Positions 3,646-20,523 of a stretch of DNA of 36,982 nt are shown here, piece by piece (the first letter of the stretch is position 1; every line of letters starts with the position of its first letter). The notes below the pieces were generated by a model. That model ran no database searches. It had not been told where the DNA came from and saw nothing but the letters and a program-made list of their open reading frames with translations. The stretch lies in contig JAQSCZ010000031.1 of assembly GCA_029945665.1 (NCBI GenBank), forward strand, positions 1 through 36,982. The letters are read 5' to 3'. This DNA comes from a bacterium (GTDB taxonomy: Bacteria > Bacteroidota > Bacteroidia > NS11-12g > UBA955). The position numbers and the translations under genes are program-made.

Positions 3646-3717
3646 GGCCCTTTAGTTCAATGGATAGAATAGATGTTTCCTAAACATTTGATCCAGGTTC
3701 GACTCCTGGAGGGGCTA
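3646..3717 (+). tRNA. tRNA-Arg(CCT)
   Basis: A 72-nt cloverleaf read by eye. The acceptor GGCCCTT (3646-3652) pairs with AGGGGCT (3710-3716) with two G-T wobbles, and the discriminator is A3717. D-stem GTTC/GAAT (3655-3658, 3667-3670). Anticodon stem GATGT/ACATT around loop TTCCTAA, with anticodon CCT at 3679-3681. T-stem CCAGG/CCTGG around TTCGACT (3693-3709). CCA is not encoded. A terminator follows directly. Confidence 0.95.
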
Positions 3718-3721
3718 CTAC

Positions 3722-3761
3722 AAAAACTCAAATCCCGCTTTCAGAGGGATTTTTAGTTTTT
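3722..3761 (+). terminator. Intrinsic terminator of tRNA-Arg
   Basis: Nested stems AAAAACT/AGTTTTT (3722-3728, 3755-3761) and AAATCCC/GGGATTT (3730-3736, 3746-3752), ending in a T-rich tract. It begins 5 bp after the tRNA. The near-symmetric A and T flanks could let it stop transcription from either side. Confidence 0.75.
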
Positions 3762-3764
3762 GTT

Positions 3765-3809
3765 GCCCTGTGGCGTGTCCGCACCTTTGTGCGGACTCTG
3801 CCACAGGGC
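3765..3809. repeat. REP-like double-hairpin palindrome, copy 1
   Basis: Outer arms GCCCTGTGGC and GCCACAGGGC (3765-3774, 3800-3809) pair perfectly. Inside them GTCCGCAC and GTGCGGAC (3777-3784, 3789-3796) pair perfectly around a CTTT loop. The GC-rich composition stands out from the AT-rich surroundings. It resembles intergenic palindromic elements such as REPs; family membership is not established. Confidence 0.75.
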
Positions 3810-3909: not shown

Positions 3910-4028
3910 GACCCTTTAGCCGCTGACGAAGCAAAGCTTGTCAGGGTGCTGACCGAAGCGTCAGCATTCAACGGATAGAATAGATGTTTCCTAAACATTT
4001 GATCCAGGTTCGACTCCTGGAGGGGCTA
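3910..4028 (+). pseudogene. tRNA-Arg(CCT) copy interrupted in the D-arm
   Basis: The 10 bases at 3910-3919 match tRNA-Arg 3646-3655 except G2 to A, and the 62 bases at 3967-4028 match 3656-3717 except one T to C in the D-loop. So 70 of 72 tRNA positions are kept, but a 47-bp block (3920-3966) splits the gene after G10. The anticodon and T arms are intact. The G2-to-A change also breaks an acceptor pair with C71. I see no copy of the upstream tRNA promoter here. It is probably a dead gene unless the insert is removed from the RNA. Confidence 0.88.
3920..3966. repeat. 47-bp two-hairpin insert in the tRNA copy
   Basis: The insert folds as two adjacent hairpins: CTGAC-g-AAGC, loop AAA, GCTT-GTCAG, then GCTGAC, loop CGAAGC, GTCAGC. 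Its ends also pair as GCTGACG (3922-3928) and CGTCAGC (3959-3965). It is GC-rich in an AT-rich setting and resembles a REP doublet. No target-site duplication is obvious. Its boundaries are fixed to the base by comparison with the intact tRNA. Confidence 0.8.
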
Positions 4029-4186
4029 CAAAACTGGTATCTGTTAAACCCACAAAAAGTTCGATATCTCCCCTGTTTGATCTTCTAGGCACATTACATT
4101 CCATCAAGGGCGGACTGGCATACATTAATTTGACACTCCCATGACACAATCCTTAAATCTTCTCCCTTTTTAATACTTAACTTCCT

Positions 4187-4194
4187 TACCTTTG
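4187..4194 (+). promoter_or_regulatory. TAnnTTTG promoter box for the CHU_C gene
   Basis: TACCTTTG matches the Bacteroidota -7 consensus exactly, 19 bp before the TTG start at 4214. A start site about 7 bp downstream gives a very short leader and supports the TTG start. A good -33 TTTG is not seen. Confidence 0.55.
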
Positions 4195-4213
4195 TTAAAA
4201 CAAAACCCTACAA

Positions 4214-7200
4214 TTGAGGCATATACATTCTACATGGCTGAACCGATTATTGGTTCCATATATCCTCCTGAACCTGCTTCTATGGCTTGACAAACCTTGT
4301 CATGCGCAATCCTGGGACTGGGTGCGTGCCTCCGAAACAACTGGCTTCAACTTTTATTCCAGCTGGCGGGACAGTGCAGCCAATATCTTTACTTGTCATC
4401 CTACGTATAACGACAATAATATCATCCGCCATTCTAAAGGATTTTCCGATACCTTACCAAAACTTGATTATATCAATAATAAGTTCCTGCTTATCAAAAG
4501 CAACCGCAGGGGCATTGTTCTATGGAAGTCTACCTGTAACGGTGAAATTGTTGATATGGACTTCTATGGAGGGTATGTCTACGTTCTCAGTCGGTTCCAT
4601 TACTCCCAGCAAATCCAGTTTACCTTCGGGGCTTCCAGTATCTCTAATATGAATGAAAAGAAAGACAAGGATTTCTCGCAGTTCTATACTTATTATATCC
4701 TTAAATACACCCACGCTGGACAGCCTCTTGAAGCCGCAAAGGTAATGCAGTTGACGAACAGAAGCAAAGTAAACAACTTTTTTGTTGCCGGCGAAAACAG
4801 GGTCCTGTTCTATATCCAGAATCAGTCTCCTGCGGGGAACGGCAGCCTCAGTCAGATGGTCTTCAGGAATACTACAATTAATAAAGATAATTCTTCGAAT
4901 AATTTCACTTTCCTCGTTTCCCTTGATATGCACAAGGATCTTAACTGGATAAAATGTTGTGGTTATACGGATTATTCATTGACGGAAAATGGGGCCAACC
5001 GCCTTTTATATGCCAATGGTTCCATCACAACGCTTGAATATGATAGCCTGCGCATAGTCAACAGGATGTATTTCAGGAAGCGCAGTATGCAGGGCGATAT
5101 CGTGAGCGAATTGCCCGTGTATGTAAAAAGATCCAACTGGCTGGTAGGCCTTAAGACTGACCTGCATGGCCATATATACTGCTATGGGAATTTTACGGAT
5201 TCTATGAGTTTTCGTAACCGCATCCTGTATGGCAAAAATAAAAACGGGAACTCGTACTTTTTAAAATTAGACGGTAATTTCAATGTTCTTGCTCATTGGA
5301 TACAGGAATCCCCATCTTCAAATATGCAAAATTTCTGTGTCGACAGCAAAGACAATGTTTATATGGCTATGATATTTTATGATTCGTTGCGGATCGGTTC
5401 GAAAATGATATACGGAAAAGCTAAAGGCACTTTATTTTTCGGGTCGTTTGTCCTGAAATTTCAGCCTGATCTTTCTAATGCCGAAGTGATTGAATTGAAA
5501 AGCAGCTCCATGAATACTCATTATGACGTATGGCTGGATAGATTTGACAACCTCTATACAAGCGGGGGTATGGAAAGTGTCCAGACGATACAGGTGAATG
5601 TAGATGACATGAAAATTGACCCGGGCTTAAATGGGTACTGTTCTTTCCAAGCCAAACTTAACCCTCAGAAGTTACGCTTGAAATACAATTCACTTTATTG
5701 CCGCGGCGATAGCCTCATCGCCGATGCAGATACAATTTATAAATGGTTCAAATGGCAGGTTGACGACAGCATAGTGTTATACGGACAGGCGGTGAAGGGT
5801 AATTTTACAGAAGGCTGGCACCATACCAGGCTTTTCGGATTCGAAAGCGATTCCGTGATGTCCTTGCGTATTGACAGTTTTCTTGTTATGCTTCCTCCGA
5901 AAGCCGCTCTGAATCTTAACCATTATAAAGTTTGCCGTTATGCGGGAACCTTGTTTACCGATAAATCCATTCTGAATATTACTTCAGGCAAAACCGTTCA
6001 TGCCTATATTTGGTTCGGGGACCAATCAGATACTTCCGTGCAGTTCGAGGTCAATGACAAGCCTCGACTTAACCTCGAACATACCTATCATGATACCGGC
6101 CGCTTTTCCATTCATTATATCATAGAATACTCGGGTTGCAGGGATACCCAGTTGCTCGACAAGGTCCTGTCGGTAATCGAATCGCCGAGACCGGGTTTCT
6201 CTGCCTTTCCACTCAGCGGCTGTGCTCCACTCACTGTGAACTTCAAGGACACCGTAACCGTCAATGTACGCCAGAAGGATTATTTCTTTTCAGACTTCGC
6301 TACATGGAAAAATATCGATATCAGCCAACCCAGTTTCCTCCATACTTTTACAAAACCCGGTGTTTACAATGTAGTCCAGAGCCTTGCCGGTTTTACCGGC
6401 TGCATCACCCGCACCGACTCTGTTCTCATCCATGTCAGCAAGGGACTTGGCATCGAAGACAGTTTGCATGTTTTCAACTCCACCGTCTCCGGCAGCAGAG
6501 CGCTTGTCAACTGGAAATCTATGGACGGCGCCCACACATATGAATTGTTGAGGGACGGGCAATTCGTCACTTTATTAACTGATACCTTCTTTCATGATAC
6601 CGGCGTATACTTGCGCGATGCCGAATATTCTATCAGGGGTTTTGACAGTTGTGGCAACCCCTGTAGTTCCGGTCGGGTTGGTAAACCCATTTTGCTCAAA
6701 GGAAACATTATTGGTTTTAATCATGGGGCCAAGCTGGAATATTCATCTTATTACCAATGGACGTCCGGCAAACTGCTTTACCGCTTACAGAAACTTTCGC
6801 CGGATAAGCAATGGAAAACGCTGCGTCAATCATCCGACACAAGCTACTTCGACGACCGAGGTTTTTTTGAAGAAGGGAAAACAGGTGCGACCTACCGCGT
6901 GGAAGCCTGTGCAATTTCCAACCCGGGTTTACTTACACACAGCAACCTTGTCTTCATCCCCTACATACCGGTAATATACTTGCCAAACGCCTTTAGTCCG
7001 AACGACGATGGAGTGAACGACCTTTACCAGCCCAAAGTATATGGCATAGAAACTTACAGGCTAACAGTTGTCAATCGCTGGGGTGAAATCATCTTTAAAG
7101 GTGAGCTTAACCAGGCCTGGCAAGCTGGCAATATTCCAGAAGGCGTCTATACAGTATTGATAAACTATACTACGAATGAAGGTCAGTCAGCAAGCCAAAG

Positions 7201-7225
7201 AATATTGGTGACGTTGTTGAAGTAA
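4214..7225 (+). CDS. Secreted PKD-like protein with gliding-motility C-terminal domain (CHU_C)
   Basis: A 1003-aa protein starting at TTG. The start is chosen because a hydrophobic signal peptide follows at once (to about residue 32, ending CHAQS) and a TAnnTTTG box lies just upstream. Residues about 40-560 look like a repetitive beta-propeller or SBBP-like region (several 'D..gn.Y' strands); this is not a firm domain call. PKD-like segments follow at about 560-655 and 655-740, then an Ig-like part. The last 90 residues, with LPNAFSPNDDGVND and VNRWGEIIFKG, are the CHU_C / type B sorting domain, so export by the type IX system is expected. Composition differs from its neighbours: for example 6181-6240 is 35 of 60 G+C, against 22 of 60 at 9001-9060. 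It lies between tRNA-derived repeats and is probably acquired. Confidence 0.9.
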   Translation: MRHIHSTWLNRLLVPYILLNLLLWLDKPCHAQSWDWVRASETTGFNFYSSWRDSAANIFTCHPTYNDNNIIRHSKGFSDTLPKLDYINNKFLLIKSNRRGIVLWKSTCNGEIVDMDFYGGYVYVLSRFHYSQQIQFTFGASSISNMNEKKDKDFSQFYTYYILKYTHAGQPLEAAKVMQLTNRSKVNNFFVAGENRVLFYIQNQSPAGNGSLSQMVFRNTTINKDNSSNNFTFLVSLDMHKDLNWIKCCGYTDYSLTENGANRLLYANGSITTLEYDSLRIVNRMYFRKRSMQGDIVSELPVYVKRSNWLVGLKTDLHGHIYCYGNFTDSMSFRNRILYGKNKNGNSYFLKLDGNFNVLAHWIQESPSSNMQNFCVDSKDNVYMAMIFYDSLRIGSKMIYGKAKGTLFFGSFVLKFQPDLSNAEVIELKSSSMNTHYDVWLDRFDNLYTSGGMESVQTIQVNVDDMKIDPGLNGYCSFQAKLNPQKLRLKYNSLYCRGDSLIADADTIYKWFKWQVDDSIVLYGQAVKGNFTEGWHHTRLFGFESDSVMSLRIDSFLVMLPPKAALNLNHYKVCRYAGTLFTDKSILNITSGKTVHAYIWFGDQSDTSVQFEVNDKPRLNLEHTYHDTGRFSIHYIIEYSGCRDTQLLDKVLSVIESPRPGFSAFPLSGCAPLTVNFKDTVTVNVRQKDYFFSDFATWKNIDISQPSFLHTFTKPGVYNVVQSLAGFTGCITRTDSVLIHVSKGLGIEDSLHVFNSTVSGSRALVNWKSMDGAHTYELLRDGQFVTLLTDTFFHDTGVYLRDAEYSIRGFDSCGNPCSSGRVGKPILLKGNIIGFNHGAKLEYSSYYQWTSGKLLYRLQKLSPDKQWKTLRQSSDTSYFDDRGFFEEGKTGATYRVEACAISNPGLLTHSNLVFIPYIPVIYLPNAFSPNDDGVNDLYQPKVYGIETYRLTVVNRWGEIIFKGELNQAWQAGNIPEGVYTVLINYTTNEGQSASQRILVTLLK

Positions 7226-7256
7226 AGTTCGACATTTTTCCCATCTCCTCTACTAC

Positions 7257-7296
7257 AAAAACTCAAATCCCGCTTTCAGCGGGATTTTTAGTTTTT
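7257..7296 (+). terminator. Intrinsic terminator after the CHU_C gene
   Basis: A perfect 9-bp stem AAATCCCGC/GCGGGATTT (7265-7273, 7279-7287) with loop TTTCA, extended by AAAAACT/AGTTTTT, and ending in a T tract. One substitution relative to copy 1 lengthens the core stem from 7 to 9 bp. Confidence 0.8.
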
Positions 7297-7299
7297 GTT

Positions 7300-7344
7300 G
7301 CCCTGTGGCGTGTCCGCAGCTTTGTGCGGACTCTGCCAAAGGGC
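7300..7344. repeat. REP-like double-hairpin palindrome, copy 2
   Basis: Same architecture as 3765-3809, but one mismatch in the outer arms (GCCCTGTGGC against GCCAAAGGGC) and one at the tip of the inner arms. Copy 1 is the better-preserved form. Confidence 0.7.
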
Positions 7345-7541
7345 TATTATTATCTCACCTCGAAAATTTAAAATCACTTTCGACATTATACATATTACAT
7401 TTACAAAAATGTATAATTGAATTTTATTTCAGATATGCCGATTTTTTATCCTCTAAAACCTGCTTCAGAGGATTAACCCTTTGTAAATATAATTCTAGCG
7501 CAAAGGATAAAAATTACCTTGATAAAAAAATAATTAAATGC

Positions 7542-18432: not shown

Positions 18433-20523
18433 TTAGGGCTGATTAAGCTTCCATAATTCAGCGCCATGTTCCTCATCATCTACAACAAAGTAGATTATGT
18501 GATTAACAACTGTAAGATTGGTTGGTGGCATATTATTGCTACTTGAATATTTGCCTTTCACTAAGTCTGTTGATTTTGATTTTCCGGAACTCTTCCACAA
18601 TTCAACACCATTGATGCCATCATTGGCTATAAAATAAAGTACACCATTTAAATTTACAAAGCCCGATAAATTTGAACTAATGGGTCCACTCCTAATATCC
18701 TTCACTAAGTCTGTTCCTTTTGAGGTGCCATTACTCGACCATAACTCAAGTCCCGCTTTTCCATCATCGGCAATAAAAAAAAGAATCCCGTTGCTAGCCG
18801 TTAATTGACTCGCATTAGAACCCTCTTTTTGGCCTTTTGTATTAATATCCTTTACTAGCATAGTGCCAGAAGAAGTGCCATCACTTCGCCACAATTCAGG
18901 GCCATTTAAGCCATTATCCGCAATAAAATAAAGGATACCATTCATTACAACCAAATCTTCTGGCTCCGATCCTTCTTCGCCTTCGTAAATATCCTTTACC
19001 ATAACAGTACCCAATGTCGTGCCATCGCTTTTCCATAATTCGTGACCATTTGTCCCATCATTCGCAGTAAAATACAAGGTACCATTCACATTAATTAAAT
19101 TATCGGGGTATGAACCAATACCCTTTGGAAGTATATCTTTTATCATCGTGGTTCCAGCAGCTGTACCGTCACTCTTCCACAATTCATTGCCATCTCTTCC
19201 ATCGCTAGCTGTAAAAAATAAAAGGCCATTGACATTGGTTAAATGTTGTGGCTCAGATGAAGCATCTCTTGGATTAATATTTTTAACCATAACTGTCCCT
19301 GCAGCTGTGCCATCACTCTTCCATAGTTCATGTCCATTGGCTTTGTCGCTTGCATTAAAAAAAAGAACACCATTCGCTTCGGTTAAAAACTGAGGTAAGG
19401 TTGAATTACCTATATATTTTAAGGGCTTTATCATCACAGTGCCCTTCTCGGTTCCATCGCTTTTCCATAGTTCGGCTGAATCTTTACCATTGTCGGCAAT
19501 AAAATAAAGTTGCCCTCTTACATTGGTCATATTTTGCAACGATGCATCCTCCAAAGCTCGTGGAAAAATATTTTTTACAACAACAGTGCCTTCACTTTGT
19601 CCATTGGTTTTCCATAACTTAACACCACCATTTAATATGGCAAAAAACAAGGTGCCATTCACATTGGTGAGTTGATAGGGAGAAGACCCTTTACCAAGTT
19701 TATTGATGTTTTTAAAAATATGGGTCCCCTCAGACAGGCCATTGGTTTGCCATATTTCTTCGCCAGTTATACCATCATTTGCAACAAAAAAAACTTGATT
19801 ATTAAAGGTTACAAAATCATGGGGATTGGCACCTTCAGGCCCATTATTTATATCCTTTACAAGCGTGGGTTTTCCTTTATCTGCTTGTTTGCCTAATTCA
19901 TTTCCACATTTAACATCTAGAAACGAAAGATAACGCACATCGTTTATTTTTGCCCCCGATAATTTAATCTCCATTTTTGTTACAATGGTTTTGGCTTTTA
20001 CTGTTCCATTCGAAGTACCATCTGAACTATAAAGTGTTTTATCTAAATAAAAGTACAATAGGCCTCCGACTGCCATTAAATCTATTGGTTTGTAATTTCC
20101 AGATCCATTATTTAAATCCTTAATTAAGTAAGTACCCTCGCTGCTACCATCCGATTTCCATAACTCAATACCATGCGCCCCATCGTATGCAGTAAAATAA
20201 ATTGACCCCTTAAATTCAGTTAAAAAAGAAGGATTCGAATGTCCCTTTCCTGGACAAATATCTTTAACAAGCACTGTACCAGCAACAGTACCATCTGTTT
20301 TCCATAACTCTGCGCCATTGATTCCGTCATCGGCCGAGAAAAAAATATAATTACCGGCCACAGTTAATTCTTTAGGGGTGGCCGAATTATTCGTTGGATC
20401 GCAATCTTTCAAGAGCATTGGCTCTTGACATTTGATCTCAATAAATTGATAACATAATAACAAACATAGTATCGGTCTAATTGCTGAACATTCAACCAAT
20501 CTAGCCATTCTTATCTTCACCAT
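18433..20523 (-). CDS. Secreted ELWxxDGT repeat protein
   Basis: A 696-aa protein built almost wholly of about a dozen repeats of roughly 48-52 residues. Each has the pattern 'lyF.a.dg.nG.ELWkSDGTaaGT.mvKdI', followed by 'p..lt.vnG'; the first ELW is at residue 72. Repeats in the middle degrade to EIWQTNG and KLWKTNG, and the last ends at ELWKLNQP. An N-terminal hydrophobic segment (ILCLLLCYQFIEIKCQE) looks like a signal peptide. The annotated ATG at 20523 or a second ATG at 20508 could be the start. The fold is probably a beta-propeller-like array; function is unknown. No type IX sorting domain is visible. A -33-like TTTG, 17 bp, and TATTTTTT precede the start. Confidence 0.88.
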   Translation of the reverse strand: MVKIRMARLVECSAIRPILCLLLCYQFIEIKCQEPMLLKDCDPTNNSATPKELTVAGNYIFFSADDGINGAELWKTDGTVAGTVLVKDICPGKGHSNPSFLTEFKGSIYFTAYDGAHGIELWKSDGSSEGTYLIKDLNNGSGNYKPIDLMAVGGLLYFYLDKTLYSSDGTSNGTVKAKTIVTKMEIKLSGAKINDVRYLSFLDVKCGNELGKQADKGKPTLVKDINNGPEGANPHDFVTFNNQVFFVANDGITGEEIWQTNGLSEGTHIFKNINKLGKGSSPYQLTNVNGTLFFAILNGGVKLWKTNGQSEGTVVVKNIFPRALEDASLQNMTNVRGQLYFIADNGKDSAELWKSDGTEKGTVMIKPLKYIGNSTLPQFLTEANGVLFFNASDKANGHELWKSDGTAAGTVMVKNINPRDASSEPQHLTNVNGLLFFTASDGRDGNELWKSDGTAAGTTMIKDILPKGIGSYPDNLINVNGTLYFTANDGTNGHELWKSDGTTLGTVMVKDIYEGEEGSEPEDLVVMNGILYFIADNGLNGPELWRSDGTSSGTMLVKDINTKGQKEGSNASQLTASNGILFFIADDGKAGLELWSSNGTSKGTDLVKDIRSGPISSNLSGFVNLNGVLYFIANDGINGVELWKSSGKSKSTDLVKGKYSSSNNMPPTNLTVVNHIIYFVVDDEEHGAELWKLNQP

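What the first reader, a model, noticed from the sequence alone, without database searches (positions are those of the whole stretch)
4026..7253. A 3.2-kb segment inserted exactly at a tRNA 3' end, with a 4-bp CTAC duplication and no recombinase
The intact locus reads tRNA, then terminator, without a break. In the second copy the tRNA half ends at 4029 and the terminator half starts at 7250, with CTAC on both sides and one foreign-looking gene between. A tyrosine integrase would normally leave a longer copy of the tRNA end, so a 4-bp duplication suggests another route: a small transposon-like unit moved in trans, or repair-mediated capture. This could be a gene cassette that targets tRNA ends.
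Basis: partly seen in the sequence, partly recalled or inferred. Interest (0 to 1): 0.7.

Follow-up and report, generated by a model that had tools for sequence, protein, structure and literature searches.

The report
Surface-protein gene cassette at tRNA end
In a freshwater Bacteroidota genome, a foreign-looking gene for a secreted surface protein has been inserted precisely at the 3' end of a duplicated, broken tRNA gene; its right border is a 27-bp site that recurs across the genus at tRNA ends and behind genes for small GIY-YIG nucleases, which points to an apparently undescribed family of tRNA-targeting gene cassettes without an integrase.

Summary
Copy 1 reads tRNA-Arg(CCT)-CTAC|TACAAAAACTC without a break. 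In copy 2 a 3.2-kb segment with one T9SS (CHU_C) gene splits the same junction, with CTAC on both sides. Three syntenic relatives keep the unsplit junction and lack the gene. One correction: the 'tRNA half' is a whole second tRNA whose D-arm holds a 47-bp palindromic insert.

The right border (7227-7253, 1 bp after the stop codon) is a 27-bp 'cap', GTTCGACATTTCTCCYATTGCCTCYAC. It occurs 44 times in 17 genomes of the genus against 9 for a reversed control; a decayed copy sits left of the gene. Caps close modules that start right after tRNA CYAC ends. Full modules hold a double hairpin and a small GIY-YIG nuclease gene; others hold only hairpins, or cargo, mostly T9SS genes. Cap ends follow the host tRNA's CTAC or CCAC, so the 4-bp duplication is general.

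Most likely this is a nuclease-less, cargo-bearing member of a tRNA-3'-end-targeting GIY-YIG cassette family. Family membership is well supported; that the nuclease drives movement is inferred (about 50%). I found no description of it in the open-access library searched.

The parts
3646..3718 (+). intact tRNA-Arg(CCT), ending CTAC
   Evidence: ARAGORN; Rfam tRNA
3719..3809 (+). double hairpin, copy 1 (terminator-like hairpin plus second hairpin with a GT/TCT internal loop), directly behind CTAC: the unsplit junction
   Evidence: z = -12
3910..4029 (+). second tRNA-Arg copy, complete in its 73 tRNA bases but broken in the D-arm
   Evidence: 3967-4029 98% identical to tRNA 1
3920..3966 (.). 47-bp palindromic insert (two hairpins) that breaks tRNA copy 2
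   Evidence: same kind of break in about 20 loci of the order
4026..4029 (+). CTAC, left copy of the 4-bp duplication (last bases of tRNA copy 2)
4059..4085 (+). decayed cap site, left of the cargo gene
   Evidence: 14.9 bits, 0 of 2000 shuffles of 4030-4213 reach it
4214..7225 (+). cargo gene: 1003-aa protein with CHU_C T9SS type B sorting domain
   Evidence: Pfam PF13585 E 4.6e-10; G+C 43.9%, GC3 0.51
7227..7253 (+). 27-bp cap, right border of the cassette, 1 bp after the stop codon; ends in the right CTAC (7250-7253)
   Evidence: 36.7 bits; 44 matches genus-wide against 9 for the reversed pattern
7254..7345 (+). double hairpin, copy 2: the half of the junction that once followed tRNA copy 2

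Best explanation
The segment 4030-7253 is a gene cassette of a family that inserts at the 3' ends of tRNA genes, between the tRNA's last CYAC and its terminator hairpins. A cassette ends in the 27-bp cap, whose last four bases follow the end of the tRNA it sits behind. Full members carry a double hairpin and a small single-domain GIY-YIG nuclease gene; short members carry hairpins only. The window's member has no nuclease and carries a T9SS surface-protein gene of foreign composition. Shown: insertion at the junction, cap sharing, caps behind GIY-YIG and T9SS genes, correspondence of cap and tRNA ends, foreign composition. Inferred: the nuclease cuts tRNA ends that lack an insert; repair copies the cassette in, and repeated rounds give tandem modules and duplicated tRNAs; nuclease-less cassettes move in trans or by recombination between caps and hairpins; spare tRNA copies persist once a palindrome has broken one loop.
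For: Cap 1 bp after the CHU_C stop, as caps lie 4-5 bp after GIY-YIG stops. Caps 44 versus 9 in a reversed control. GIY-YIG module between two caps in this genome's contig C35. 19 of 39 small GIY-YIG hits in the genus and 7 of 23 outside it lie within 300 bp behind a tRNA on the same strand. Cap end follows the tRNA end class at all 14 loci compared (and the window). T9SS genes next to caps also in L256, L257, L071 and L070. Unsplit junction in G005, G006 and G011. Residues typical of GIY-YIG domains are kept in most of the nucleases. Precedent: SegB, a GIY-YIG nuclease between tRNA genes, promotes tandem amplification of a tRNA segment (PMC2988022, PMC13096335).
Against: The window's segment has no nuclease gene. 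Homing does not by itself predict a 4-bp duplication. The left end has no double hairpin and no conserved start. No strain pair was at hand in which the same locus differs only by the cassette. Enzyme activity is untested. Some small GIY-YIG genes have no tRNA nearby.
Confidence: 0.52

Rival explanations
1. Integron-like cassette: the cap is a recombination site for a tyrosine recombinase acting in trans, the tRNA end plays the role of attI, and GIY-YIG genes are only common cargo.
For: One short site directly behind each gene and serial arrays resemble integron cassettes. The genome has eight tyrosine-recombinase loci, one (C104) scoring with XerA and integron-integrase models.
Against: No strong cap within the stretches fetched around those loci. 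The cap is not of the attC form GTTRRRY (from memory) and does not fold. Tyrosine recombinases exchange 6-8 bp, not 4 (general knowledge).
Confidence: 0.2
2. No dedicated mobility: caps and hairpins are dispersed genus-specific repeats that act as terminators, and homologous recombination between them brought a foreign gene between tRNA copy 2 and its hairpins.
For: Hairpin 1 is terminator-like; modules occur in many places and in tandem; homologous repeats can exchange flanks.
Against: Does not explain the match of cap ends with the tRNA end class, the position of caps 1-5 bp after stops, or the strong GIY-YIG link to tRNA ends.
Confidence: 0.18
3. A transposon-like insertion with a staggered 4-bp cut by an unknown transposase acting in trans, with GIY-YIG genes as passengers.
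For: Duplication of CYAC that tracks the target; hairpin-only modules resemble short non-autonomous elements.
Against: No terminal inverted repeats and no transposase inside any module read; targets are confined to tRNA ends and older caps.
Confidence: 0.07
4. Assembly chimera or binning contamination.
For: The segment is bounded by near-repeats of 63-102 bp, differs in G+C, and the assembly has 126 contigs.
Against: The two hairpin copies differ from each other. The cap is genus-specific. The protein's closest relatives among 108 genomes of the order lie in this genus.
Confidence: 0.03

Closest known systems
Free-standing GIY-YIG homing endonucleases of T-even phages, SegB (PMC2988022, PMC13096335)
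   Same: Small GIY-YIG gene lying among tRNA genes; linked to tandem copies of a tRNA segment
   Different: Here on bacterial chromosomes of a whole order, immediately behind single tRNAs, with hairpins, a 27-bp cap, 4-bp duplication, palindrome-broken tRNA copies and cargo; the window's member lacks the nuclease
Integron gene cassettes (from memory)
   Same: One gene with a short site directly behind its stop codon; serial arrays behind a fixed anchor
   Different: Anchor is a tRNA end, no integrase at the anchor, site is not an attC
Tyrosine-integrase islands at tRNA genes and tycheposons (from memory)
   Same: tRNA 3' end as target; duplicated tRNA sequence
   Different: No integrase gene; only CTAC shared at the two borders of the cargo segment
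REP/REPIN and other GTAG-tagged palindromes (PMC3733652)
   Same: Dispersed hairpins, some with GTAG at the stem
   Different: Two-hairpin block with a cap, at tRNA ends, often with a nuclease gene inside

Membership tests
GIY-YIG homing cassette (SegB-like) | GIY-YIG nuclease gene inside the element | tested here: not met
   The window segment has only the CHU_C gene; met by other members of the cap family
GIY-YIG homing cassette (SegB-like) | Nuclease cuts the allele without the insert near the insertion point | not testable with these tools
   Needs an enzyme assay
GIY-YIG homing cassette (SegB-like) | Insert-free allele exists in relatives | tested here: met
   Unsplit junction in G005, G006, G011 and in copy 1
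tRNA-3'-end cap family defined here | 27-bp cap at the right border, directly followed by hairpins | tested here: met
   36.7 bits at 7227-7253, hairpins from 7254
tRNA-3'-end cap family defined here | Starts directly behind a tRNA CYAC end, and the cap repeats that tetranucleotide | tested here: met
   CTAC at 4026-4029 and 7250-7253; same rule at 13 other loci
Integron gene cassette | intI integrase with attI at the anchor | tested here: not met
   No tyrosine recombinase on contig C31
Integron gene cassette | attC site (GTTRRRY ends, folded single strand) | tested here: not met
   Cap reads GTTCGAC and does not fold better than shuffles
Tyrosine-integrase island | Integrase gene within the element and long identical att repeats | tested here: not met
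   No integrase; borders share CTAC only
DNA transposon or MITE | Target-site duplication | tested here: met
   CYAC, tracks the tRNA end class
DNA transposon or MITE | Terminal inverted repeats | tested here: not met
   No inverted-repeat pair of 25 nt or more joins the two ends; the borders read AAAACTGG and CTCCTCTAC
REP/RAYT elements | RAYT (Y1) transposase in the genome | not tested

The most novel reading that the evidence does not exclude
An undescribed, order-wide family of bacterial chromosomal cassettes that target tRNA 3' ends without an integrase, driven by a free-standing GIY-YIG nuclease; it duplicates tRNA genes, leaves spare copies with one tRNA loop replaced by a palindrome, and carries surface-protein cargo between genomes.
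Probability: 0.38. Interest if true: 0.82.

Novelty: new variant of a known kind. Interest (0 to 1): 0.62.

Why it matters
If a small GIY-YIG nuclease and a 27-bp end suffice to load genes behind tRNAs, many tRNA-linked islands without an integrase have another explanation, and bacteria have a gene-cassette route apart from integrons. The recurrent cargo is T9SS surface proteins, which shape how these bacteria meet their surroundings. The palindrome-broken tRNA copies may record where the nuclease acts, which makes the rule testable.

Tried and rejected
Cap pattern in viral contigs: no match. Rfam: only tRNAs. Idea that the cap folds like an attC: rejected. Link of caps to a tyrosine recombinase: no strong cap near any of them. 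Donor of the CHU_C gene: best relatives 42-43% over the C-terminal half, all in the genus, so no donor was found. Literature: no paper held all of 'GIY-YIG', 'tRNA genes', 'Bacteroidetes' and 'inverted repeat', and none of the titles and abstract openings listed describes the association; only open-access papers are held.

Full report
Check of the observation. The window is contig C31 of a 3.79-Mb, 126-contig genome. tRNA-Arg(CCT) 3646-3718 runs into a strong double hairpin. The tRNA stretch recurs at 3967-4029 and the hairpin block at 7250-7351, so the second tRNA|hairpin joint is split by 4030-7249 with CTAC on each side. The unsplit joint is present in copy 1 and at the syntenic loci of G005, G006 and G011, which lack the gene. 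The split is therefore an insertion. The gene (CHU_C, T9SS type B) is 43.9% G+C with GC3 0.51 in a 35% G+C background.

Correction. Copy 2 of the tRNA is not a half. 3910-3919 supplies the missing first ten bases, and 3920-3966 is a 47-bp palindromic insert in the D-arm. The same kind of break is seen widely: in about 20 loci of the order, spare tRNA copies next to an intact tRNA have the D, anticodon or T loop replaced by a short palindrome such as TCCCGATAGCTATCGGGA or TCCGCCTGAGGCGGA, most of them with arms that no or few of 200 shuffles reach.

The right border. 7227-7253, GTTCGACATTTTTCCCATCTCCTCTAC, starts 1 bp after the stop codon. A matrix built from other copies finds only two sites above 8 bits in the whole window: this one (36.7) and 4059-4085 (14.9; 0 of 2000 shuffles), on the other side of the gene. 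Genus-wide there are 44 matches with up to 3 mismatches against 9 for the reversed pattern. In the scan of GTDB species genomes the strict pattern is confined to this genus except for one doubtful record.

What caps belong to. Caps occur 114-158 bp behind tRNA-Arg, -Met, -Val and -Glu (mostly hairpin-only modules), 447-476 bp behind tRNA-Val, -Met and -Phe with a small GIY-YIG gene between, and directly behind genes: GIY-YIG (4, 4 and 5 bp), the window's CHU_C (1 bp), DUF2971 (17 bp), and T9SS proteins in G007, G014 and this genome (37-41 bp; another at 185 bp). In this genome's contig C35, DUF2971-cap-hairpins-GIY-YIG (one internal stop)-cap-hairpins-cap lie in series. In G007:C21 three caps border stretches that include a 1055-aa T9SS gene. 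Five of the six non-nuclease genes found just before a cap in the same orientation are T9SS genes; such genes are common in this genome, so I put no P value on this.

GIY-YIG and tRNAs. Of 39 small GIY-YIG hits in the genus, 19 have a tRNA within 300 bp upstream on the same strand; with about 35 tRNAs in 3 Mb, chance gives about 0.4% each (my estimate). Outside the genus 7 of 23 do. Modules at other tRNAs end in a copy of the host tRNA's 3' part (up to 35 bp) instead of the cap.

The 4-bp duplication. Thirteen tRNA-linked caps and the window's were compared. The seven behind tRNAs ending CTAC all end CTAC. The seven behind tRNAs ending CCAC or CCGC end CCAC, or TCAC in one; two of these seven differ from their tRNA by one base. 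The exact probability of the two-class split is 1/3432 if the loci were independent, which related elements are not. The tRNA-Glu case matches over GGACTAC.

How it likely works. Shown: precise placement, shared end, cap-tRNA correspondence, nuclease-bearing relatives, cargo. Inferred: the nuclease opens the tRNA|terminator junction, repair installs the module, and caps or hairpins let cargo-bearing, nuclease-less modules spread. Phage SegB, a GIY-YIG nuclease in a tRNA intergenic region (PMC2988022), promotes tandem amplification of a tRNA segment by homologous recombination and is widely found with tRNAs in phages (PMC13096335). That is the nearest precedent. The weak point is the 4-bp duplication, which homing does not by itself predict; a staggered-cut insertion or an RNA-templated route is not excluded.

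Rivals. A trans-acting tyrosine recombinase (integron-like) is possible, but no integrase locus has a strong cap nearby and the cap is not attC-like. Plain recombination between repeats explains less of the precision. A chimera is unlikely because both the cap and the protein are typical of the genus.

Verdict. A real, well-delimited insertion; a cargo member of an apparently undescribed tRNA-3'-end cassette family; the mechanism is plausible but untested. How far the family deserves the name 'new' depends on the enzyme test in the next steps.

Noticed in passing
L074 5100-6100 (G000:C106): tRNA-Met is followed by two GIY-YIG genes (96% identical over 300 bp); between them lies a copy of the tRNA 3' end whose T-loop is replaced by CCGCCTAAGGCGG, followed by a double hairpin.
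   Followed up: partly
L024 8590-11430 (G005:C15): At the tRNA-Arg(CCT) locus of G005 a 5' remnant of an older tRNA lies just upstream of a different, intact tRNA-Arg; two genes, one a fucosyltransferase-family gene, lie between it and a decayed tRNA 3' end with hairpins. It looks like an island that brought its own replacement tRNA.
   Followed up: partly
window 3763-3809, and L024, L037-L041, L069, L074: The second hairpin keeps an asymmetric internal loop (GT against TCT) while the stems around it change completely; possibly a protein-binding or RNA motif. No Rfam match.
   Followed up: partly
L031 8240-8350 (G015:C70): A second tRNA-Arg copy has a hairpin of about 30 bp (CCAGCCCGAACGACGTTCAGTCGGGCGGGT) in its D-loop, like the broken copy in the window.
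   Followed up: partly
window 18433-20523: A 696-aa ORF on the minus strand holds about ten imperfect 144-bp repeats (48 residues each).
   Followed up: no
L084 152-1204 (G000:C104): A 350-aa tyrosine recombinase that scores with XerA and integron-integrase models sits at the very start of a 9-kb contig; no cap nearby.
   Followed up: partly
L098 and L256: A public MAG titled Chitinophaga pinensis has the contig length and cap of G007:C21 of this genus; the name is probably wrong.
   Followed up: partly
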